Part shown: piece by piece, positions 38,755-61,883 of the stretch
How positions within the stretch are numbered: position 1 is the first letter of the stretch
Layout: each line of letters begins with the position of its first letter
Source of the DNA: Morganella psychrotolerans
Lineage (GTDB): Bacteria; Pseudomonadota; Gammaproteobacteria; Enterobacterales; Enterobacteriaceae
DNA: 64,000 nt
Assembly: GCF_001676055.1 (NCBI RefSeq)
Contig: NZ_LZEX01000001.1
Span: forward strand, 558,001-622,000
Reading direction: 5' to 3'
The notes under the pieces: model-generated
Seen by the model: the letters and a program-made list of their open reading frames with translations, nothing else
What the model was told of the DNA's origin: nothing
Database searches by the model: none
Translations under genes and position numbers: made by a program

Positions 38755-38791
38755 AAAAATCCCGGCAGGATCTCCTGCCGGGATTTTTTTT
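38755..38791. terminator. Strong bidirectional terminator after pta
   Basis: AATCCCGGCAGGA and TCCTGCCGGGATT pair fully around a 2-base loop, flanked by A5 on the left and T8 on the right. It ends ackA-pta from the left and the DAHP synthase operon from the right. Confidence 0.95.
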
Positions 38792-38804
38792 ACCGGTCAC
38801 ATCA

Positions 38805-40019
38805 TCAGAACTGCCCCGTCAGCCCGGCAAGCTCTGCCGACTGAGAACGGTTCAGTCTCGGGTCACACAGTGATTCATATCGTTCACCGACATCATCATC
38901 AGCAATCTTCTGCAGGCCGCCGGTGCACTCGGTCACATCACGCCCTGTCATTTCCAGATGCAAACCACCGGGATGAACGCCCTGCGCGCGTAAAATCTGC
39001 ATAAAGAGACGAACTTCTTCACACACGGTCGCAAAATCACGGGTTTTCAGACCGGATACTGTACTGCGGGTGTTGCCGTGCATCGGATCTGTCAGCCAGA
39101 TAACCGGGCTTTTCAGCCTTGCCACCGCCTGTAATAACACAGGCAGTTTTTCCCGGATATGTGCCACACCCAGCCTGACAATCAGCATAATTTTGCCGGG
39201 TTGATTGTGCGGATTAAGCCGCTGTAATAATTGCCTCAGCTTTTCCGCTGTCATCGACGGCCCGCATTTTATACCCACAGGGTTCGCTATTCCCCGCAGA
39301 TATTCCACATGCGCCTGTGAAGGTTCACTGGTACGATCCCCCAGCCAGACAGTATGCGCCGCGCCGTTATACCACTGATTATCAGCCGGATTCAGACGCG
39401 TCAGTGCGCTGTCATAAGGCAACAACAGTGCCTCATGACTGACATAGAACGGATCAAATACCGTATCCGCGGATGACGAGCCACCACTGTTATTGTGCAG
39501 CGCGTTCAGAGTGACCGCCGCACGGTGGTAAGCACCCAGCATCCTTTGCGGATCAGGGATGCGCTGTGCCACAGAAAATTCGTGGCCATTAATAATATCC
39601 CCGCGATAGCTCGGCAGTGAAATACCGTTTTGTACCTCATCCGGACTACTGCGTGGTTTGGCATACTGACCGGCAATACGCCCGATTTTTAATACCGGCT
39701 GCGATAACCCGCTGTGCAGAAGCCCCGTCATTTGAGAGACCGTGTCAGTCCAGGCATTGAGCACATCCTCACGACATTGCGAAAAGGCTTCAGCACAGTC
39801 CCCGCATTGCAGAATAAACCCCTGACTATCACTGATCTGCTTTAATGCGCCGGTCAGTGATTGTATCTCAGTGACAGACACCAGCGGTGGTGCTGCCTGT
39901 AGCTGTTGCTGAACATACCGGACTGACTCCGGCTCCGGATAATCCGGCTGCTGCTGAGCCGGAAATTGCATCCATGAGGAAGGCGTCCATTCCTGCAGCC
40001 CGTCCTGTTTTTTTATCAC
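38805..40019 (-). CDS. Class II 3-deoxy-7-phosphoheptulonate (DAHP) synthase, PhzC/AroA_II-like
   Basis: Condenses PEP and erythrose 4-phosphate at the head of the shikimate pathway. It belongs to the plant/actinobacterial class II, unlike the housekeeping AroF/G/H of enterobacteria. Family blocks are intact: QCGDCAEAF (metal Cys), GRIAGQYAKPRSSP, SHEALLLPYDSALTR, LGDRTSEPSQAHVEY, TDPMHGNT and GGLHLEMTGRDVTECTGG. The GTG at 40019 has AGGAG 7 bases upstream and gives 404 aa. That is shorter than the ~460-aa regulated enzymes and typical of copies serving secondary metabolism, such as PhzC. It is the last gene of a four-gene operon, 19 bp after the cupin gene. Confidence 0.88.
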   Translation of the reverse strand: MIKKQDGLQEWTPSSWMQFPAQQQPDYPEPESVRYVQQQLQAAPPLVSVTEIQSLTGALKQISDSQGFILQCGDCAEAFSQCREDVLNAWTDTVSQMTGLLHSGLSQPVLKIGRIAGQYAKPRSSPDEVQNGISLPSYRGDIINGHEFSVAQRIPDPQRMLGAYHRAAVTLNALHNNSGGSSSADTVFDPFYVSHEALLLPYDSALTRLNPADNQWYNGAAHTVWLGDRTSEPSQAHVEYLRGIANPVGIKCGPSMTAEKLRQLLQRLNPHNQPGKIMLIVRLGVAHIREKLPVLLQAVARLKSPVIWLTDPMHGNTRSTVSGLKTRDFATVCEEVRLFMQILRAQGVHPGGLHLEMTGRDVTECTGGLQKIADDDVGERYESLCDPRLNRSQSAELAGLTGQF

Positions 40020-40038
40020 CTGACAGCTCCTGAAATAA

Positions 40039-40437
40039 TTAGGTACGATCCTGTGATGTCGCCAGGTAAGTTTCAAATTTACCTGTCTGCCGCGCGACAT
40101 AGTCCTCACGCACCGGGGTATACACATCGATCACTTCAGAGGCTTCAAGTACCTCTGCTTCATGGATTGCCCACGAAGGAACAAGACCTGAATCACCGGC
40201 ACGCAGGATCATAGTTTCACCATCAACAACCAGGCGCAGCGAACCTGACAAAACGGTTGTCAGCGTTTCATGCTCATGCTGGTGCTCCGGAATAACCGCA
40301 CCGGTTTTAAAAGTCCAGAATGTCATGGTAAATGCCGTGCCATGAATAAATTTTGCCAGAGCCTTACTCTCTTCCCCCTCTTTGCGGGTTAAGTCCATAT
40401 CATACGAAATCAGTTCATCTGCCGGTATTAAGCCCAT
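40039..40437 (-). CDS. Small single-domain cupin (BacB/AerE-like context)
   Basis: A 132-aa one-domain cupin. Motif 1 gives His52, His54 and Glu57 in IPEHQHEHETLTTVLSG, and motif 2 gives His92 in GDSGLVPSWAIHEAEV, so a metal site is complete. The PEHQH...VLSG block resembles motif 1 of BacB, the two-domain isomerase that follows the prephenate decarboxylase BacA in bacilysin synthesis. A BacA-like gene lies directly upstream here. Isomerisation of a dihydro-hydroxyphenylpyruvate is therefore my inference, not a demonstrated activity. GGAG lies 7 bases before the ATG. The gap to the upstream gene is 55 bp. Confidence 0.7.
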   Translation of the reverse strand: MGLIPADELISYDMDLTRKEGEESKALAKFIHGTAFTMTFWTFKTGAVIPEHQHEHETLTTVLSGSLRLVVDGETMILRAGDSGLVPSWAIHEAEVLEASEVIDVYTPVREDYVARQTGKFETYLATSQDRT

Positions 40438-40492
40438 AATGTGCTCCTGCTGAGTAGTAAATTAAATTCAATAAAATTAAATAAAAAAAATG

Positions 40493-41017
40493 TTATTTAG
40501 GGGCATGAATAGAAAAGCCCATCGGAACCGGTCCGAAATCATGCAAAATATGCAGATGGTATTTTTTTGCCGCACTGAGTGTGGTAATACAGGCATCAAC
40601 AACACCATGCGCACATTGCACACCGGCCTCACTGTTTGAGGTAAACAGTGATTTTCTGACACCTTTATTCAACAGCGGTAATTCATTAAACAGATCCTGC
40701 GGAGCCGGATGCGAACCGACATGGCGGATATCGTTATAATCAGTATGGCGGCTGGCAAATAACATATTATGTGTATCCAGCACAAAGCAGGCCTTTAATT
40801 CCAGTGATAATAAATTCTGAAAAACAATATTATGTAAATCCGGATAAACAATGCAGCCAAGTAATACGCCGTCATTATCACACTTTACTGCTTCAACGGC
40901 TTTTTCCAGTGTCTGATATAATTTCACATTGCCTTTTATATTATTTTCACTTAACCAGTAATGTGCGGCTTTCTCACAATTCGTTCCGTTCGGACCGAGT
41001 GTATGAATGGTTAACAC
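40493..41017 (-). CDS. BacA-like prephenate decarboxylase (prephenate-dehydratase fold)
   Basis: A 174-aa protein with the prephenate-dehydratase fold signature at its N-terminus (IHTLGPNGTNCEKAA, compare TLGPEGTSSEYAA in BacA). It lacks the catalytic Thr-Arg-Phe motif of true dehydratases. The C-terminal GPVPMGFSIH resembles SIPMSWSLF of BacA, a non-aromatising decarboxylase. It also lacks the regulatory ACT domain. I infer decarboxylation of prephenate to a dihydro-4-hydroxyphenylpyruvate. The GTG start has AAGGAG 7 bases upstream and lies 20 bp after the RraA-like gene. AT-rich composition suggests acquisition by transfer. Confidence 0.72.
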   Translation of the reverse strand: MLTIHTLGPNGTNCEKAAHYWLSENNIKGNVKLYQTLEKAVEAVKCDNDGVLLGCIVYPDLHNIVFQNLLSLELKACFVLDTHNMLFASRHTDYNDIRHVGSHPAPQDLFNELPLLNKGVRKSLFTSNSEAGVQCAHGVVDACITTLSAAKKYHLHILHDFGPVPMGFSIHAPK

Positions 41018-41037
41018 GATAACTCTCCTTCAGATAA

Positions 41038-41733
41038 TTATATTCTTCCGGTTTGACTGATTAAATCAGGAAGCCGTTCCCCATGCTGTATTCTGTTCAA
41101 CATTTCATTTTCGACATTAGTTATTTCCAGTGCCTTATCTAAAACCAGCTCAATAAGATCATAAGGAACAATAACCACACCGTTAATATCTGCGACAACT
41201 AAATCACCGGTATGAACGGTCGTTTGTTCTATCTGACACGAACCGCCTGTTTCAGATATATAATAAGCGCCCTGGGTATCAGTTGGTGTTAAATTAGTGG
41301 CGATCACCGGAATAGAGAGTGCATTAAGATCATGACCATCCCTGACTGCCCCGCCTAATATCACGCCTTCAAATCCAAGTTTTTCGAAATAGGTACAGCT
41401 CATGCCGCCCGCCAATGCTGCATCGCGGATACACTCCCCGCTGCCCGCGACATACACCAGATCAGTTGCGTCATACAATTCCGGCACCAGAAAATCACGC
41501 ACCTGTTCCCAGGTCGATTCTGACGGAGCCAGAATACTGCTTCCTTTACGGACAATTTTCCATTGAACGGTATAAGCTTGTGCCGCCATATAATAATCAC
41601 GGCAATTAAATGATGTTAATTTATAACTTAATGTACTGCCGGTTTTAAATCCATCCATAATATCAACAAGGGTGGATGTACTTATTTTAAGTTCTCTGAT
41701 CGTATTTAATTTAGCAATATCAATTTTTTGCAT
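41038..41733 (-). CDS. RraA/HMG-aldolase family protein
   Basis: The 231-aa product has the RraA fold signature VILGGAVRDGHDLNALSIPVIA and GVVIVPYDLIELVLDKAL. It keeps the Arg131-Asp132 pair that HMG/CHA aldolases use for substrate and metal, whereas RraA itself (RNase E inhibitor) has Arg-Gln there. An aldolase or beta-keto-acid decarboxylase activity is therefore likelier than RNase E control. It is about 70 aa longer than E. coli RraA, mostly at the N-terminus. It is the first gene of the prephenate operon, with GGAGGT 5 bases before the ATG; that site can be masked by a hairpin. Confidence 0.72.
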   Translation of the reverse strand: MQKIDIAKLNTIRELKISTSTLVDIMDGFKTGSTLSYKLTSFNCRDYYMAAQAYTVQWKIVRKGSSILAPSESTWEQVRDFLVPELYDATDLVYVAGSGECIRDAALAGGMSCTYFEKLGFEGVILGGAVRDGHDLNALSIPVIATNLTPTDTQGAYYISETGGSCQIEQTTVHTGDLVVADINGVVIVPYDLIELVLDKALEITNVENEMLNRIQHGERLPDLISQTGRI

Positions 41734-41738
41734 TTCTT

Positions 41739-41774
41739 ACCTCCGACACAAAGTCTACTCATTCATCCGGAGGT
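41739..41774 (-). promoter_or_regulatory. 5'-UTR hairpin able to mask the ribosome-binding site of the prephenate operon
   Basis: In the mRNA, ACCTCCG (41774-41768) is complementary to CGGAGGT (41745-41739), and the latter contains the Shine-Dalgarno sequence of the first gene. The stem is 7 bp, with a 22-base loop. This could make translation of the operon conditional. It is also possible that a random anti-Shine-Dalgarno match is being over-read. Confidence 0.45.
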
Positions 41775-41850
41775 TGTAATTGTTATTAATTATCACGACA
41801 CACTTAAAACTTAATTAATTTAGCAATAAATAAACAAAAGTATTTTAACG

Positions 41851-41877
41851 AAAAAAAATCTCCTTACGGAGGTTTTT
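41851..41877. terminator. Terminator between the M48 gene and the prephenate operon
   Basis: AATCTCC-TTAC-GGAGGTT (one G-U pair) is flanked by A on the left and T5 on the right. On the minus strand it is a hairpin followed by T8. It isolates the protease pair from the downstream four-gene operon, which must therefore have its own promoter in 41775-41850. Confidence 0.75.
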
Positions 41878-41905
41878 AATATAAAAATATTTTTCTAATA
41901 TATAA

Positions 41906-43471
41906 TTATCTATGTAACTCATGCCGCGCATGGGCTGTTTGTAACTGTCCGTGGATAAGCTCAGAGAGCGCCTGTAATGACAATGTTTTTCCCTCCCAGA
42001 GCCGGACGCCCCCCATCATGATCAATAGCTTCTGTTTTTTGGCATCAAATTTAAAGAAGCGATTTTTCCCTGCCATAACTGGTGCCGGTGCACCATCAGC
42101 CACATGCAGTGTGATGGTCACCATTCCTGATGTTTCACTGAGATCATAATCCACGATATAGTGCAGCGGATACGCTTGTGCCAGATTATCACTGACCAGT
42201 TGCCCGTGACGAAAAGAAAACAATGGTGTTTTGCCCCGGTTGCGGTACATAAAAGCCACTCCCCAGAACAATAATAAAAATCCGCCACCATAAATCGCTG
42301 CAGAATCAAGCATATTGCTGATCCCCATTTTGGCAGCCGCAATCCCCATTCCTGCCGCAATAAGCGCCCCGAGAATGAACATGGTCAGGAAGGTTTTACG
42401 CCGCTCACCAAGTACGACTTCATCCGCCGCCGTTGATTCATTCAGCAGCGTTTCCAGAACTTCAGTGCGCTGCGCATTATAGTCCGTTGCCTCATTCGAC
42501 AGCGATGCGGTCAGCATCATGGAAATCGCTTTGGCATCCGTAAAGAGGTCAGAAATATTCTCATAATCCTGCGCCTGCACTTCACGTGAGGCCGCCGCCA
42601 GAAGCTCTGTGTCTATCTCCTGAGACAGCGCTTCAATACGGGCACGGGTCTGCGGGTGGGTATCACTCGGGTGAGTCGTTGCGTCATCCAGAAATGATTC
42701 AGCCGCCGGAACGCCGCGCTCACGCAGACGGTTCATTACAACCGGCAGCAGGTCATCAGTCTGTAATGTACCGTCATATAACTCAGCCAGTGTTTCATAA
42801 ATAACCTCGCTGACCGCCGAAATACGCAGCAATGAGCCGGATACCGCCGCCGGTGAACTGACAGCGGCCCCCGCTTTGTCTGCTTCCAGTTCGCGGATAC
42901 GGCTCCAGTGGCTGACCGCAAAATCAAATTGCTCCAGGAAAAAGATCCCCAGATACACAGACGGGCTCATGATCACTTTACTGTATATATCCTGCACCTC
43001 ATCAGCCACCAGAGAAATACTCTGGCTCATTCCCGCGTAAATCGGTGCAAAATTCAGGCTGTATGTGGTGTCTTCACCGGTGAAATGCCCCAGTTCATGA
43101 CCAATGACCGCCGTTGCTTCTTCCCGGTTAAGCAGTGCGGAATAGAGCAGCGGAAAATACAGCGTTTTGCCTTCAATCTGCTGTGTATCATTCAGGCAGA
43201 TAGCATGTGATGTCACATAAAAGCACTCAGTCATCCCCACAATGATATGATCCGGCGACGCAGTTCCGACCTTCCCGGCGGTTTCATCCACCCATTGCCA
43301 GAGACCCGGTGCTTCATCACGGCTGACAGCGTGCCCGATAACAGAAGACGGCTCACTGCGGAACATGGCAAAGCTTTTACGCAGCTTGAACAGCCCTTTG
43401 ATGATGTAACTTGCAATAAGCAGAATACTGATCAGGAGAAAGATCATCATCTTCACCCCGCCGCCGTTCAT
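41906..43471 (-). CDS. Membrane-bound M48-type metalloprotease
   Basis: From the ATG at 43471, which overlaps the upstream stop by 4 bp (ATGA), it has 521 aa. An N-terminal membrane anchor (FLLISILLIASYIIKGLF) is followed by a protease domain with the zinc motif His125-Glu126-x-x-His129 in VIGHELGHFTGED and a third ligand in the ELEADKAG motif, about residues 194-198. Near residue 355 come two more hydrophobic helices (MFILGALIAAGMGIAA and AIYGGGFLLLFWGVAFMY). Last is a soluble, strand-rich C-terminal domain I do not recognise. An ATG at 43450 preceded by GGGG is an alternative start. The substrate is unknown. It is coupled to the small membrane protein gene upstream. Confidence 0.8.
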   Translation of the reverse strand: MNGGGVKMMIFLLISILLIASYIIKGLFKLRKSFAMFRSEPSSVIGHAVSRDEAPGLWQWVDETAGKVGTASPDHIIVGMTECFYVTSHAICLNDTQQIEGKTLYFPLLYSALLNREEATAVIGHELGHFTGEDTTYSLNFAPIYAGMSQSISLVADEVQDIYSKVIMSPSVYLGIFFLEQFDFAVSHWSRIRELEADKAGAAVSSPAAVSGSLLRISAVSEVIYETLAELYDGTLQTDDLLPVVMNRLRERGVPAAESFLDDATTHPSDTHPQTRARIEALSQEIDTELLAAASREVQAQDYENISDLFTDAKAISMMLTASLSNEATDYNAQRTEVLETLLNESTAADEVVLGERRKTFLTMFILGALIAAGMGIAAAKMGISNMLDSAAIYGGGFLLLFWGVAFMYRNRGKTPLFSFRHGQLVSDNLAQAYPLHYIVDYDLSETSGMVTITLHVADGAPAPVMAGKNRFFKFDAKKQKLLIMMGGVRLWEGKTLSLQALSELIHGQLQTAHARHELHR

Positions 43472-49169: not shown

Positions 49170-49857
49170 CTAAGGTTTATATGCCCTGACTTCGCCACTG
49201 AGTTCACTGAGCTGTTTCAGTTCACCTAATGAGGACTCCAGCTGTGCTTTTGATGCCGACGGTCCGACCATAATCAGGGTAACTTTTCCGCGCGGTACAG
49301 TATACACCTGATAACCCGACAACCGCAGTGTGGCGACTATCTCTTCCACCCGGCGGGCATTGGATAATGCACCGAGCTGGACCACCCAGGCCTGTCCCTG
49401 AGGCGTTTTTTTCCGGCTTAGGTTCCGGTTTAGGCTCTGGTTTTGGTTCCGGCTTAGGCTCCGGTTTTGGTTCCGGCTTAGGCTCAGGTTTTGGCTGAGG
49501 CTGTGGTTCCGGTGGTTTTTCCGGTACAACAACCGGCGGCAGAGGCGCAACCCCCGGCGGAACATTCGATGTGGTACCGGAGCTTGTCACATCAGCCGGT
49601 ACACTGTCGCCAGTCTGAGCCGCTTCCGTTATCATCGCGCTGGACGCACCTTCCGACGGCATTGACGGCATGGTCTGATTAATTGGATTTACCGCATCAA
49701 TCTCATCCTGCTCTCCCTCTTTCGGGATAAGCGGGATGGAGGCGAACTGGTCTTCGTTATATTTCTTATCGCCATCCAGCAGCGCCGGCAGGACAATTAC
49801 GCCCACCGCGACCAGGATTATCGTTCCGACTAAGCGATTCTGAAATTTACTGGCCAC
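49170..49857 (-). pseudogene. dedD: Cell-division SPOR protein DedD, frame interrupted at an A7 tract
   Basis: DedD is an inner-membrane septal protein. The gene starts at a GTG at 49857 ([21 protein letters not shown], one membrane helix), with AGGAAGG upstream, overlapping the folC end by 11 bp. A proline-rich periplasmic linker with seven KPEP repeats follows. The C-terminal SPOR domain (QAWVVQLGALSNARRVEEIV, ending LSGEVRAYKP at 49170) is in another frame. One A too many in the run at 49406-49412 shifts it; as written, translation ends at 49222 after 211 codons without SPOR. Either a sequencing error, a slippage site, or a real loss. With six A the product would be about 228 aa, as expected (E. 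coli 220). Confidence 0.88.
49413..49496 (-). repeat. Tandem 12-bp repeats coding for KPEP units in dedD
   Basis: Seven near-identical 12-bp units encode Lys-Pro-Glu-Pro repeats in the periplasmic linker. Such tracts change copy number easily. The run ends directly at the A7 tract that breaks the frame. Confidence 0.85.
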
Positions 49858-51148
49858 CCGCACCTTCCTCTGATGATAAAACGTCCATAACATGCGCGAC
49901 AGTATGGAATGATCCACATACCACAATGATGTCGCCGGCATCTGCATCCTGACACGCCTGTGCCCATGCGCTTTCCACATCTGCAAACAATTGTGCGCCG
50001 GGAATATGCTCAGCAAGCTGTTCTGCCGGTGCGCCGCGTAGCTCGGTCAGCGGTGCAAAATACCAGTCTGTCACCTGCTCACTCAGCACCGCGAGAGTGC
50101 CTTTAATATCTTTGTCTCCCAGCATTCCCACCACCGCCCGGACACGTGTGTGTGCTGTGCGCGGCAATTGTGCCAGTTTTGATACCAGATATCCTGCCGC
50201 ATGCGGATTATGCGCCACATCCAGCACCGTCAGCGGCTGCTGTGACACAATCTGGAAGCGGCCCGGCAGTTGTGCCTGACGCAGACCGGTATCAATCGCC
50301 TCACGACTGATTGCCCGTCCGGTTTTATCTTTCACCTGACGCAGGTTGTGAATAACCGCCAGCGCAGTGGCAGCGTTCGCCAACGGGACATTCGGCAACG
50401 GCAGATTGGTCAGGGTTTCATCCTCACACTGCCATGTCCAGTGATCGCCCTGTTCTTCATACGACCAGTCATCCGCACGGCAGAATAGTGATGTTTCCAG
50501 CTTATTTGCCACATCTGCAATAGTATAAGGCGCATCGGGCTCGCCGATTACCGCCACGCAGTGCGGACGGAAAATACCGGCTTTTTCACGGGCGATATGC
50601 TCACGATCAGCACCCAGCCAGTCGGTATGATCCAGTGCGATACTGGTGATTGCGGTAATATGTGAATCCACAATATTAGTGGCGTCCAGACGCCCGCCAA
50701 GGCCGACTTCGAGAATAACCACATCAAGATTGGCTTCACGGAATAACTGCAATGCCGCCAGCGTACCCGCTTCAAAATAGGTCAGCGTGATATCGCCGCG
50801 CTGTGCGTCAATATCAGCGAACACGCGGCAGAAATCCGCTTCAGAAGGATTTTCCCCCTGAATACGGACACGTTCGGTGTAATTAATCAGATGCGGGGAA
50901 CTGTAGACCCCGACCCGCAACCCGGCCGCAAGAAAGACTGACTCAAGCGTATGGCAGGTAGTGCCTTTACCGTTGGTTCCGGAGACGGTAATCACTTTCG
51001 GCGCGGGATAGCGCAGATTCATGATATCTGCCACCACACCGATGCGTTCCAGTCCCATATCAATAACCTGCGAATGCAGGTCACCCAGATAAGAAAGCCA
51101 CGCCATCAATGATGACGCAGCTGTCAGTTTCTCTTGCTTATCAGACAT
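49847..51148 (-). CDS. folC: Dihydrofolate synthase / folylpolyglutamate synthase (FolC part of the fused frame)
   Basis: Adds glutamate to dihydropteroate and extends polyglutamate tails on folates. From the ATG at 51148 ([20 protein letters not shown]) it has 433 aa (E. coli 422). It shows the Mur-ligase ATP loop [18 protein letters not shown], the second motif [16 protein letters not shown], and [26 protein letters not shown]. No good ribosome-binding site precedes this ATG; an ancestral overlap with accD suggests translational coupling. Its end overlaps the dedD GTG. Confidence 0.9.
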
Positions 51149-52108
51149 CGCGTTTTTTTGACATCTCGTTTTTTTAACGTCAACTGTTGTTTCAGAAGAT
51201 AAAGCGGTATCAGCTTCATCTGCTGTCAGGATCTCAATAGCACCCTCTTCGCAGGGGAACTGATAGTTTGTCAGTTTTGACAAAATTTCAGCAATGGTAT
51301 CGCGCATGTCAGGACGACGGACAATCATATCAATTGCGCCTTTTTCCAGCAGAAACTCGCTGCGCTGGAATCCCGGTGGTAATTTCTCACGTACCGTCTG
51401 CTCAATAACACGCGGGCCGGCAAAGCCAATCAGGGCTTTCGGCTCACCGATATTGATATCACCCAACATAGCCAGGCTTGCGGAAACGCCGCCCATAGTC
51501 GGGTCTGTCAGAACAGAGATATACGCAAGGCCGCGTTCCTGCATTTTAGCCAGTGCCGCACTGGTTTTCGCCATCTGCATCAGCGACATCAGGGCTTCCT
51601 GCATACGGGCACCACCGCTTGCGGAGAAACACACCAGCGGACAGTTATCTTCCAGTGCCTGTTCAACCGCACGGACAAAGCGCGCGCCGACAACAGAAGA
51701 CATAGAACCGCCGATAAATGCAAATTCAAACGCGGCTGCCACGACCGGCATGGTTTTCAGTGTCCCTTTCATCACCACCAGCGCTTCTTTCTCACCGGTG
51801 GTCTTTTGCGCGGCCACTAAACGATCTTTATATTTTTTGGAATCACGGAATTTCAGAATATCTTTTGGTTCGAGATCGGTTCCGAGTTCCGTTGTGCTGC
51901 CTTCATCCAGGAACGTTTCCAGACGATTGCGTGCCGAAATCCGCATATGATGATCACACTTCGGGCACACCCCGAGATTGCGCTCTACTTCCTGCCGGTA
52001 GAGCACCTGACCACAACTGTCACATTTAGTCCAGACACCTTCAGGAATGCTCGCCTTACGGTTCTGGTTAATTGGGGTCTTATTCAGAATTTTTTCAATC
52101 CAGCTCAT
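49847..52108 (-). CDS. accD: AccD-FolC fused reading frame (acetyl-CoA carboxylase beta subunit + folylpolyglutamate synthase)
   Basis: One 753-codon frame. Residues 1 to about 300 are AccD, the carboxyltransferase beta subunit for malonyl-CoA synthesis: a zinc ribbon (KCDSCGQ and GVCPKCDHH) and the crotonase-like core ([20 protein letters not shown], then [14 protein letters not shown]). Residues 321-753 are FolC. In E. coli these are separate adjacent genes. Here a 16-bp tandem duplication at 51144-51175 puts accD in frame with folC. Removing one copy would restore an AccD of about 318 aa ending inside folC by a short overlap. Whether a fused protein is made, or FolC starts separately at 51148, cannot be told from sequence. 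Confidence 0.9.
51144..51175 (-). repeat. 16-bp tandem duplication at the accD-folC junction
   Basis: On the coding strand, AAAAAAACGAGATGTC is followed directly by AAAAAAACGCGATGTC, with one mismatch. Sixteen is not a multiple of three, so the duplication changes the accD frame and fuses it to folC. Each copy carries an A7 tract and an ATG. Confidence 0.9.
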
Positions 52109-59871: not shown

Positions 59872-61164
59872 GTGAAAAAAAACGTAATTGAAACGGCTCA
59901 TTTAACCCTGAACGAACAGGGTACACCTGTTTCGCAACATTTTGATGACGTCTATTTTTCAAACGATGGCGAACAGGCGGAAACCCGTTATGTGTTCCTC
60001 AGCGGTAACGATTTTCCTGCACGGTTCAGCCGGATTACCACACAAACCTGTACCGTGGCAGAAACCGGATTCGGCACCGGGCTGAATTTTCTGACCCTCT
60101 GCCAGAGCTTTCGTCATTTCCGTAACACACACCCGGACAGCCCGCTGCGGCGCCTGCATTTTATCAGTTTTGAAAAATACCCGCTGGCGTCTGAGGACTT
60201 ACAGGCTGCACATCAGCGCTGGCCGGAATTCGCAGATTTCTCCTTACAACTGTACGCTCAGTGGCCGCACGCCGCTCCCGGTTGCCACCGGATTTTTTTA
60301 GATAACGGAGACATTACACTTGATTTATGGCTGGGTGATATCAGCACACTTCTGCCGTCTCTCACCCATGCGCTGGATAACAAAATCGACGCCTGGTTTC
60401 TGGACGGCTTTGCACCGTCAAAAAATCCGGATATGTGGCAGCAGCCACTGTTTGAACTGATCGCCCGCTTCACCCGCCCGGGCGGGACATTTGCCACCTT
60501 TACCGCCGCAGGCTTTGTCCGCCGGGGTTTACAACAGGCAGGATTTGATGTGGAGCGCCGGACAGGTTTTGCCCACAAACGTGAATGTCTGGCCGGTATC
60601 AATACCCGCACACCCGCCGTCTCTCTCACTCCCTGGCACGATCGCCACCCTGCTGCTGCCCGCAGGCACATTGCAGTTATCGGCGGCGGAATAGCCGGTG
60701 TACTCAGCGCCCTCACTCTGTTGCAACGAGGCGCGGACGTTTCGTTATATTGCGCTGATGACTCATTAGCCACCAATGCATCCGGTAACCGGCAGGGCGC
60801 GCTCTATCCTCTGCTGACCGGTCTTGACGATCCTCTTGAACGTTTCTTCACGGTCGCCTTTACGTTTGCACGGCGCACCTATGATGCGCTGTCTGCTCAG
60901 GGTGTGAAATACAGTCATGATTGGTGCGGTGTTATCCAACTGATGTATAACGAAAAAAACAGAAAAAAAGTCAATGCCATTGCTGCTGTTCCCCGCCCTG
61001 AAACACTGTTTAAGATATTGTCACGCCAACAACTCAGTGAGCTTGCGGGTCAGGATGTGAATTCCGGTGGCTTATATTATCCTGCCGGTGGCTGGCTCTG
61101 TCCGCAGGAATTAGTGCATGGTGCCGCCGCACTTGCACAAAAAAAGGTCTGCATCTGTATCTGA
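59872..61164 (+). CDS. mnmC: MnmC N-terminal part: methyltransferase domain and start of the FAD domain
   Basis: The 430-aa product of the unshifted frame. The methyltransferase domain (about residues 1-245) is complete, so the methylating half of the reaction could survive. The FAD domain is cut after about 160 residues, ending in the unrelated tail VCICI. Confidence 0.8.
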   Translation: MKKNVIETAHLTLNEQGTPVSQHFDDVYFSNDGEQAETRYVFLSGNDFPARFSRITTQTCTVAETGFGTGLNFLTLCQSFRHFRNTHPDSPLRRLHFISFEKYPLASEDLQAAHQRWPEFADFSLQLYAQWPHAAPGCHRIFLDNGDITLDLWLGDISTLLPSLTHALDNKIDAWFLDGFAPSKNPDMWQQPLFELIARFTRPGGTFATFTAAGFVRRGLQQAGFDVERRTGFAHKRECLAGINTRTPAVSLTPWHDRHPAAARRHIAVIGGGIAGVLSALTLLQRGADVSLYCADDSLATNASGNRQGALYPLLTGLDDPLERFFTVAFTFARRTYDALSAQGVKYSHDWCGVIQLMYNEKNRKKVNAIAAVPRPETLFKILSRQQLSELAGQDVNSGGLYYPAGGWLCPQELVHGAAALAQKKVCICI

Positions 61165-61244
61165 ACCATAATGCAGAGCATCTGGAGCAGACCGCACAGG
61201 GCTGGCAGATCCGTTTTGCCGATAACAGCACCGTACAGACAGAT

Positions 61245-61883
61245 GTGGTTGTGCTGGCAAATGGTCACCACATCACACAATATCCGCAGTCCGCTGCACT
61301 GCCGGTAACACCGGTGCGCGGACAAGTGAGCCATGTGCCGACTGTTCCGGCAATTGCCGGGCTGAAAGCCGTGCTCTGTTATGAAGGTTATCTGACCCCG
61401 GTCAACCCGGCAGACGGACAACACAGCCTCGGTGCCAGTCACCAGCGTAATGACATCACAACCACATACAGTGAAGAGGAACAACTTGCCAACAAAGCGC
61501 GTCTGCTCACTTCCCTGCCGGATGTGAGCTGGTCTCATGAAGTGGATATCAGCGGAAAAGAGGCGCATACAGGCATCCGCTGTACCGTGCGCGATCACCT
61601 TCCTGTAGTCGGTAACGTACCTGACTTTGCACAACTTATGGTGCAATATGCAAAACTGGAAAGAATGAAACGCAAGCCGGATTTGGTCAGCAGCGCTGCA
61701 GATATACCGCAGTTGTTTATCATCGGGGCACTCGGTTCACGGGGGTTATGTACTGCACCACTGGCGGCTGAATTGCTCGCGGCTCAGATTTTTGATGAAG
61801 CCCTGCCGCTGGATGATGAAACACTGGCGGAATTGCATCCGAACCGTTTTCATATCCGTAAATTACTCAAAGGTGCACTGTAA
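61245..61883 (+). CDS. mnmC: MnmC C-terminal fragment of the FAD oxidase domain
   Basis: The remainder of the FAD domain (VVLANGHHITQY; VRGQVSHVPTVP; DVSWSHEVDISGKEAHTGIR; LGSRGLCTAPLAAELLAAQI) in the -1 frame relative to the first part. The ATG-like opening codon here is an internal GTG with no ribosome-binding site. It is expressed only by frameshifting or if the run is really A8. Confidence 0.75.
   Translation: MVVLANGHHITQYPQSAALPVTPVRGQVSHVPTVPAIAGLKAVLCYEGYLTPVNPADGQHSLGASHQRNDITTTYSEEEQLANKARLLTSLPDVSWSHEVDISGKEAHTGIRCTVRDHLPVVGNVPDFAQLMVQYAKLERMKRKPDLVSSAADIPQLFIIGALGSRGLCTAPLAAELLAAQIFDEALPLDDETLAELHPNRFHIRKLLKGAL

What the first reader, a model, noticed from the sequence alone, without database searches (positions are those of the whole stretch)
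38805..41733. Four-gene operon predicted to divert prephenate into an uncharacterised non-aromatic metabolite
Seen: on one strand, gaps of 20, 55 and 19 bp link an RraA/HMG-aldolase-like protein, a prephenate-dehydratase-fold protein lacking Thr-Arg-Phe but ending like BacA, a one-domain cupin, and a short class II DAHP synthase; a terminator isolates it from the gene upstream. Known: BacA-type decarboxylases with cupin isomerases make dihydro-hydroxyphenylpyruvates in bacilysin (BacA/BacB) and aeruginosin (AerD/AerE) synthesis, and a related decarboxylase leads to 2,5-dihydrophenylalanine in Photorhabdus; extra class II DAHP synthases feed secondary pathways such as phenazines. Inferred: the operon boosts shikimate flux and makes a cyclohexenyl or dihydro-aromatic product. 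The RraA-like member is not part of the bacilysin set, and no aminotransferase, ligase or exporter is present, so the product should differ.
Basis: partly seen in the sequence, partly recalled or inferred. Interest (0 to 1): 0.82.

Follow-up and report, generated by a model that had tools for sequence, protein, structure and literature searches.

The report
Movable four-gene prephenate-diverting operon
A small movable set of four genes in Morganella and its relatives probably turns an intermediate of aromatic amino acid synthesis into an unknown small molecule, using a close relative of TdaC, a protein of unsolved role from a marine antibiotic pathway.

Summary
The operon is real: four open minus-strand genes (gaps 20, 55, 19 bp) for an RraA-like protein, a 174-aa prephenate-dehydratase-fold protein, a one-domain cupin and a class II DAHP synthase. 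All four occur in the same order in 12 of 12 distinct loci examined in Morganella, Providencia and Proteus (three of them damaged). It is a discrete cassette: 3 of 3 Morganella genomes without it show an empty site.

Main correction: the 174-aa protein is nearer to TdaC of the tropodithietic acid cluster (45% identity) than to BacA (26%; BacA recalled). A tree separates a TdaC clade (97/96) from BacA-like proteins and true dehydratases. TdaC's reaction is unresolved in the papers seen. In six other loci a TdaC-clade gene lies directly upstream of a DUF6421 (Fe/pterin oxidase family) gene; one of these clusters also has DAHP synthase/chorismate mutase, which points to prephenate.

The RraA-like protein keeps a pyruvate-aldolase motif in 12 of 12 loci. 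The Morganella DAHP synthase lacks the inserted allosteric helices. Likely function: shikimate-fed diversion of prephenate to a small, probably non-aromatic product. No activity is shown; extra phenylpyruvate supply remains a rival.

The parts
41038..41733 (-). Gene 1: RraA-like protein, 231 aa, probable class II pyruvate aldolase or decarboxylase
   Evidence: Pfam RraA-like 2.9e-19; G-x20-R-D-x2-[ED] in 12 of 12 loci; aligns with R123/D124 of aldolase 3NOJ
40493..41017 (-). Gene 2: TdaC-clade PDT-fold protein, 174 aa, no Thr-Arg-Phe, no ACT domain
   Evidence: Pfam PDT 8.6e-08; 45% to TdaC; TdaC clade 97/96
40039..40437 (-). Gene 3: one-domain cupin, 132 aa, with H52, H54, H56, E57, H92 conserved
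   Evidence: Pfam Cupin_2 1.5e-14; residues invariant in 8 of 8 aligned
38805..40019 (-). Gene 4: class II DAHP synthase, 404 aa, short form without helices alpha2a/2b
   Evidence: Pfam DAHP_synth_2 507.6 bits; below NCBIfam TIGR01358 cut-off (489.7 of 614.7); gap against PA2843 about 182-231
38755..38788 (.). Two-way intrinsic terminator shared with pta
   Evidence: 16-bp perfect inverted repeat; folds z -6.4 and -6.8
41851..41872 (-). Weak terminator-like hairpin and T8 between the M48-peptidase-like gene and the operon
   Evidence: z about -1.1 to -1.2; not listed
38793..41917 (.). Extent of the cassette that is missing at the empty site of Morganella genomes without the operon
   Evidence: blastn of three empty-site loci, breakpoints within a few bases of each other

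Best explanation
A self-contained, horizontally moved four-gene pathway that draws carbon into the shikimate route and diverts prephenate to a small non-aromatic product. Step 1: the class II DAHP synthase, in Morganella without its inserted allosteric helices, raises shikimate flux (inferred from anatomy). Step 2: host enzymes make chorismate and prephenate (established pathway). Step 3: the TdaC-clade protein, with the PDT fold but without the dehydratase Thr-Arg-Phe and the ACT domain, acts on prephenate, most likely by BacA-like decarboxylation without aromatisation (inferred). Step 4: the metal-binding cupin isomerises or oxidises that product (inferred). Step 5: the RraA-like protein, with an intact class II pyruvate-aldolase motif, does enolate chemistry on the pyruvyl side chain (inferred). 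With no aminotransferase, ligase or exporter, the product is probably a small compound that leaves by itself or by host transporters (inferred). Shown: anatomy, family and clade, conservation, empty site, motif retention. Not shown: any enzyme activity.
For: All four genes in the same order in 12 of 12 loci from three genera, with genus-specific settings and an empty site in 3 of 3 Morganella genomes lacking it. TdaC-clade placement of gene 2 next to BacA-like proteins and away from PDTs. Absence of Thr-Arg-Phe. DAHP synthase in this operon and DAHP synthase/chorismate mutase in a Pseudoalteromonas cluster with a TdaC-clade gene point to prephenate. RraA-type aldolase motif in 12 of 12. Short-form DAHP synthases lacking these helices work mainly in secondary metabolism (PMC6435475, passages). 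No PaaA/PaaC match in the genome, so a tropone product is unlikely.
Against: No activity, transcript or metabolite data. The BacA sequence was recalled and sits on a long branch; one search warns of long branches. A review suggests TdaC may simply make phenylpyruvate (PMC7497051). TDA is made by a Janthinobacterium without tdaC (PMC13163973), so TdaC's role even there is unsure. The cupin is not specifically BacB-like. The Providencia and Proteus DAHP synthases keep the inserted helices, so loss of regulation is not a general feature of the operon. The structure model of gene 2 failed (pLDDT 48.5). Three of 12 copies are damaged.
Confidence: 0.42

Rival explanations
1. Unregulated phenylpyruvate supply: the TdaC-clade protein is still a prephenate dehydratase that lacks the ACT domain; with the helix-less DAHP synthase it makes extra phenylpyruvate, which the cupin and the RraA-like protein process further.
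For: A review proposes prephenate to phenylpyruvate for TdaC as precursor supply (PMC7497051, passages). Dispensability of tdaC in Janthinobacterium (PMC13163973) fits a supply role. One PDT-family row (L067) also lacks an exact Thr-Arg-Phe, so the motif is not an absolute test.
Against: Gene 2 lacks the N-x-T-R-F block and the E-N-x3-G stretch of the 8 PDTs and is only 17% identical to the genome's own PDT domain. Proteeae already make phenylpyruvate from phenylalanine with an amino acid deaminase (recalled).
Confidence: 0.2
2. The TdaC clade uses another substrate, for example a different shikimate-derived or keto acid compound, and the operon makes something unrelated to prephenate.
For: TdaC's substrate is unknown (PMC7497051, PMC13163973, passages). 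The clade has its own invariant residues not seen in BacA-like or PDT sequences, such as Cys14 in T-N-C-E and Cys143.
Against: Shikimate-entry genes sit in this operon and in the Pseudoalteromonas cluster, the latter with chorismate mutase. The two sister groups, PDT and BacA, both act on prephenate (established, recalled).
Confidence: 0.2
3. Gene 1 is a regulator of RNase E (RraA in the strict sense) and not an enzyme of the pathway.
For: Pfam and NCBIfam place it in the RraA superfamily.
Against: 22.8 bits against a cut-off of 241.25 for enterobacterial RraA; the Arg-Asp catalytic pair is kept in 12 of 12 loci.
Confidence: 0.05

Closest known systems
TdaC of the tropodithietic acid (tda) cluster, Phaeobacter and Tritonibacter
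   Same: Same clade; 45% (Phaeobacter) and 39% (Tritonibacter) identity; same T-N-C-E, H-P-A-P, C-I-T-T and V-P-M-G-F-x-I-H blocks
   Different: tdaA-F neighbours are absent here, and this genome has no PaaA/PaaC match
   Same: Gene 2 relatives at about 44-51% identity, nearest by profile (2e-80)
   Different: Partner is a DUF6421 protein (Fe/pterin oxidase family, PMC12614342) with ligases in 4 of 6 and aminotransferases in 2 of 6, instead of cupin plus RraA-like
Bacilysin BacA/BacB and other non-aromatising prephenate decarboxylase pathways
   Same: PDT fold without Thr-Arg-Phe or ACT; a cupin in the operon; prephenate as likely substrate
   Different: Gene 2 is outside the BacA-like group; cupin has one domain and matches BacB at E 0.042 only; no aminotransferase, ligase or exporter; RraA-like protein added
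RraA-type HMG/CHA aldolase (3NOJ)
   Same: Fold family, Arg-Asp pair and G-x20-R-D-x2-E/D motif
   Different: Low similarity (1.9e-5), different operon, substrate unknown
Type IIB short-form DAHP synthase PA1901 (PhzC)
   Same: Lacks alpha2a/2b and lies in a secondary-metabolism-like operon (PMC6435475, passages)
   Different: Sequence nearer to long-form PA2843 (9.8e-118) than to PA1901 (3.5e-81); Providencia and Proteus orthologues are long, so a separate loss

Membership tests
TdaC clade | Groups with TdaC in a tree, apart from BacA-like and PDT sequences | tested here: met
   20-row clade 97/96; operon rows 11, one branch 100/98
TdaC clade | Same reaction as TdaC | not testable with these tools
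   TdaC's reaction is unresolved in PMC7497051 and PMC13163973 (passages)
Tropodithietic acid cluster | tdaA-F neighbours and phenylacetate catabolism genes | tested here: not met
   No such neighbours in the window list of ORFs (judged by eye); no PaaA/PaaC match in the genome
Prephenate dehydratase (PheA type) | Thr-Arg-Phe motif | tested here: not met
   Present in the 8 PDTs (not in a ninth, L067); absent here
Prephenate dehydratase (PheA type) | Pfam PDT score over cut-off | tested here: met
   32.6 bits against 25.2, but 32.4 against 219 in NCBIfam
BacA-type prephenate decarboxylase | Sequence grouping with BacA | tested here: not met
   26% to recalled BacA; operon plus BacA-like rows as one clade disfavoured, p-AU 0.031, with long branches in play
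BacA-type prephenate decarboxylase | Decarboxylates prephenate without aromatising it | not testable with these tools
   needs enzyme assay
BacB-type cupin | Two cupin domains related to BacB | tested here: not met
   One domain of 132 aa; BacB at E 0.042
RraA-type class II pyruvate aldolase | Arg-Asp catalytic pair and metal-binding motif | tested here: met
   12 of 12 loci (motif wording recalled); alignment to 3NOJ
RraA-type class II pyruvate aldolase | Aldolase or decarboxylase activity | not testable with these tools
   needs enzyme assay
Class II DAHP synthase | Family score and catalytic sequence blocks | tested here: met
   Pfam 507.6 bits; blocks invariant in 6 of 6 aligned (roles of the blocks recalled); below the NCBIfam equivalog cut-off
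Type IIB short-form DAHP synthase | No alpha2a/2b helices | tested here: met
   Gap opposite PA2843 182-231; met in the 3 Morganella rows, not in the Providencia and Proteus rows
Type IIB short-form DAHP synthase | Sequence nearer to PA1901 than to the long form | tested here: not met
   PA2843 9.8e-118, PA1901 (6bmc) 3.5e-81

The most novel reading that the evidence does not exclude
The operon encodes a new fate of prephenate: cleavage of its side chain. The TdaC-clade protein decarboxylates prephenate without aromatising it, the cupin moves the double bond out of the ring and adds water, and the RraA-like enzyme splits the resulting tertiary-alcohol 4-hydroxy-2-oxo acid (the bonding pattern of its textbook substrate HMG) into pyruvate and a six-carbon hydroxycyclohexenone-type product. 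Such a small neutral compound needs no aminotransferase, ligase or exporter, which fits the gene set. TdaC would then be a non-aromatising prephenate enzyme as well, revising the present guess for tropodithietic acid.
Probability: 0.12. Interest if true: 0.85.

Novelty: new variant of a known kind. Interest (0 to 1): 0.58.

Why it matters
TdaC's reaction is an open question: a review calls its role obscure and a 2026 paper calls it unresolved (PMC7497051, PMC13163973, passages). This operon is a small setting for the same enzyme clade in easily grown bacteria, with three partners and natural empty-site relatives for comparison. It shows that the clade is not tied to tropones: three gene contexts (tda, DUF6421, RraA-cupin) share one branch beside the BacA-like proteins, so one shared reaction on prephenate becomes directly testable. 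An RraA-like protein acting on a prephenate-derived keto acid would be a new use of that superfamily.

Tried and rejected
BacA orthology of the 174-aa protein: tested, not met. Tropone synthesis in this genome: rejected, no PaaA/PaaC match. A solved relative of the 174-aa protein: none by sequence, one chance-level row by profile (E 0.79). AlphaFold2 model from the six sequences allowed: poor (pLDDT 48.5), so no fold search was run. Flanking repeats as a sign of how the cassette moved: only short, chance-like ones, so the route is unknown. Close relatives of the RraA-like protein and the cupin outside the operon: besides two Proteus mirabilis records, the rows listed reach about 34% and 39% (lists capped); no match to the RraA-like protein at E 1e-20 in 368 other genomes of the class. 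A paper on this gene set: none seen (open-access library only, so weak evidence of absence).

Rows dropped or merged: the broken gene 2 of P. alcalifaciens (L008) was left out of the tree. A second Proteus mirabilis record (NZ_OL790812) was seen in searches but not opened. The PDT alignment held 8 of the 9 PDT-family rows; the one left out (L067) lacks an exact Thr-Arg-Phe. Five PDT loci were first read on the wrong strand (two of them showing stops) and were re-read before the tree.
Full report
Observation. The window lies in a Morganella genome close to M. psychrotolerans (gene 2 is 97% identical to L003). Four open genes run on the minus strand: RraA-like (41733-41038), PDT-fold (41017-40493), cupin (40437-40039) and class II DAHP synthase (40019-38805). 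Gaps are 20, 55 and 19 bp. A perfect 16-bp inverted repeat forms a two-way terminator towards pta; the upstream terminator is weak. Pfam confirms the four families.

Conservation and mobility. tblastn finds all four genes in the same order and strand in 12 of 12 distinct loci found through gene 2: the window, M. psychrotolerans L003, M. morganii L004, eight Providencia genomes (L005, L006, L007, L008, L029, L052, L053, L055) and Proteus mirabilis H63 L009. Three of the 12 are damaged: L008 (breaks in genes 2 and 4), L053 (internal deletion in gene 4) and L007 (gene 1 lacks its first part). Among species representatives gene 2 is present in 3 of 6 Morganella and 8 of 24 Providencia genomes. Of 295 genomes of the GTDB family 9 have any match, and 3 of these (two Morganella with the window, one Providencia) are of this type. 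In a draw of 369 genomes of the class only the window's genome has a match better than 1e-4; in 398 of the phylum the only strong ones besides it are G760 and G869, two genomes of one other family. G760 matches Phaeobacter porticola by record length (218,458 bases, searches list). The settings differ by genus: beside pta in Morganella, beside an acetate permease gene in Providencia, between plsY-like and tsaD-like genes in Proteus (neighbours named by eye). In 3 of 3 Morganella genomes without the operon the pta terminator is followed at once by the M48-peptidase-like gene, so the cassette spans about 38793-41917. G+C is 41-42% in genes 1 and 2, 49% in gene 3 and 54% in gene 4, against 51% for the window: genes 1 and 2 look foreign, gene 4 does not.

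What gene 2 is. In the plasmid collection, TdaC of tropodithietic acid clusters matches at about 44% and proteins annotated BacA at 30-34%. In a joint alignment gene 2 is 45% identical to Phaeobacter TdaC, 26% to BacA (recalled) and 17% to the genome's own PDT domain. In a tree of 38 sequences the 11 operon rows (100/98) lie in a clade of 20 with three TdaC rows and six rows paired with DUF6421 (97/96); the nine BacA-like and other rows lie outside it, and nine PDT rows stand apart (100/100). The program warns of long branches, BacA and L027 among them. An AU test disfavours operon plus BacA-like rows as one clade (p 0.031). Profile comparisons rank DUF6421-paired 2e-80, TdaC 8e-48, BacA-like 2e-24 and PDT 4e-6. 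The N-x-T-R-F block, invariant in the 8 PDTs, is missing; a ninth PDT-family row (L067) reads Ala-Arg-Tyr, so the block is a strong but not absolute mark.

What is known of TdaC. A review says its role remains obscure and suggests prephenate to phenylpyruvate (PMC7497051, passages). A 2026 paper reports tropodithietic acid from a Janthinobacterium without tdaC and calls TdaC's role unresolved (PMC13163973, abstract and passages). The TdaE paper's main text does not mention TdaC (PMC8283759, find).

Contexts of the clade. In S. xylosus, Pseudoalteromonas, two Pantoea, Serpentinimonas and G869 the TdaC-clade gene is followed directly by a DUF6421 gene (G869 by eye and motif), with ATP-grasp genes near in 4 of 6, an aminotransferase in 2 of 6 and a candidate exporter in 6 of 6. 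The DUF6421 metal motif given for the PolE family (PMC12614342, passages) is present in 5 of 6, the sixth annotation being truncated. The Pseudoalteromonas cluster also has a DAHP synthase/chorismate mutase, which would make prephenate. With the DAHP synthase here, that is the best indirect sign that the clade uses prephenate.

Partners. The RraA-like protein aligns R131 and D132 with the essential Arg-123 and metal-binding Asp-124 of aldolase 3NOJ (roles from PMC5065237, passages). The motif G-x20-R-D-x2-E/D is present in 12 of 12 loci (wording of the motif recalled). The cupin keeps H52, H54, H56, E57 and H92 in 8 of 8 but is only weakly like BacB. The DAHP synthase is the only class II copy in the genome. 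Against PA2843 it lacks about residues 182-231, covering most of the alpha2a/2b insert (179-225 in PMC6435475, passages); Providencia and Proteus orthologues keep it. It is nearer to long-form PA2843 than to short-form PA1901, so the short form seems to have arisen separately in Morganella.

Mechanism and judgement. Shown: a movable, conserved four-gene unit with a TdaC-clade enzyme, an apparently competent RraA-type aldolase, a metal-binding cupin and a DAHP synthase. Inferred: flux into shikimate, action on prephenate without aromatisation, cupin rearrangement or oxidation, enolate chemistry on the side chain, and a small product without a dedicated exporter. The chief rival is extra phenylpyruvate supply. 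The boldest open reading is cleavage of the side chain into pyruvate and a six-carbon ring ketone.

Limits.

Noticed in passing
L010/L071, L011, L012, L034, L013, L050: A TdaC-clade gene directly followed by a DUF6421 (PolE, Fe/pterin oxidase family) gene in six loci, with ATP-grasp ligases in four: candidate dipeptide-like product clusters, one on a 25.6-kb mobilizable Staphylococcus xylosus plasmid.
   Followed up: partly
L024, L025, L026, L030, L031: A conserved cluster around a BacA-like gene (Lrp regulator, Dabb, DUF2000, PaaK-like ligase, branched-chain aminotransferase, carboxymuconolactone-decarboxylase-like, ornithine-cyclodeaminase-like, LysE) in three unnamed enteric genomes, a Pantoea plasmid and a Pseudomonas aeruginosa plasmid.
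   Followed up: no
L027 7309-7893, L028 7443-8033: A very divergent PDT-fold gene (about 24% to gene 2 for L027) in a cluster with aminodeoxychorismate-synthase-like genes and an MFS transporter (named by eye).
   Followed up: no
window 38805-40019; L006, L009, L005: The DAHP synthase lost the alpha2a/2b insert in the Morganella lineage only; Providencia and Proteus orthologues keep it, so the short form arose separately from PhzC.
   Followed up: partly
L008, L053, L007: Damaged copies of the operon in three Providencia genomes, pointing to loss in some lineages.
   Followed up: partly
window 49847-52108 (-): accD and folC (named by eye) form one open frame of 753 codons; fusion or homopolymer error of a draft genome not told apart.
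   Followed up: partly
window 59872-61883 (+): mnmC (named by eye) is split over two frames near 61160; mutation and assembly error not told apart.
   Followed up: partly
window 49222-50016 (-): dedD-like gene (named by eye) changes frame after its KPEP repeat; mutation and assembly error not told apart.
   Followed up: partly
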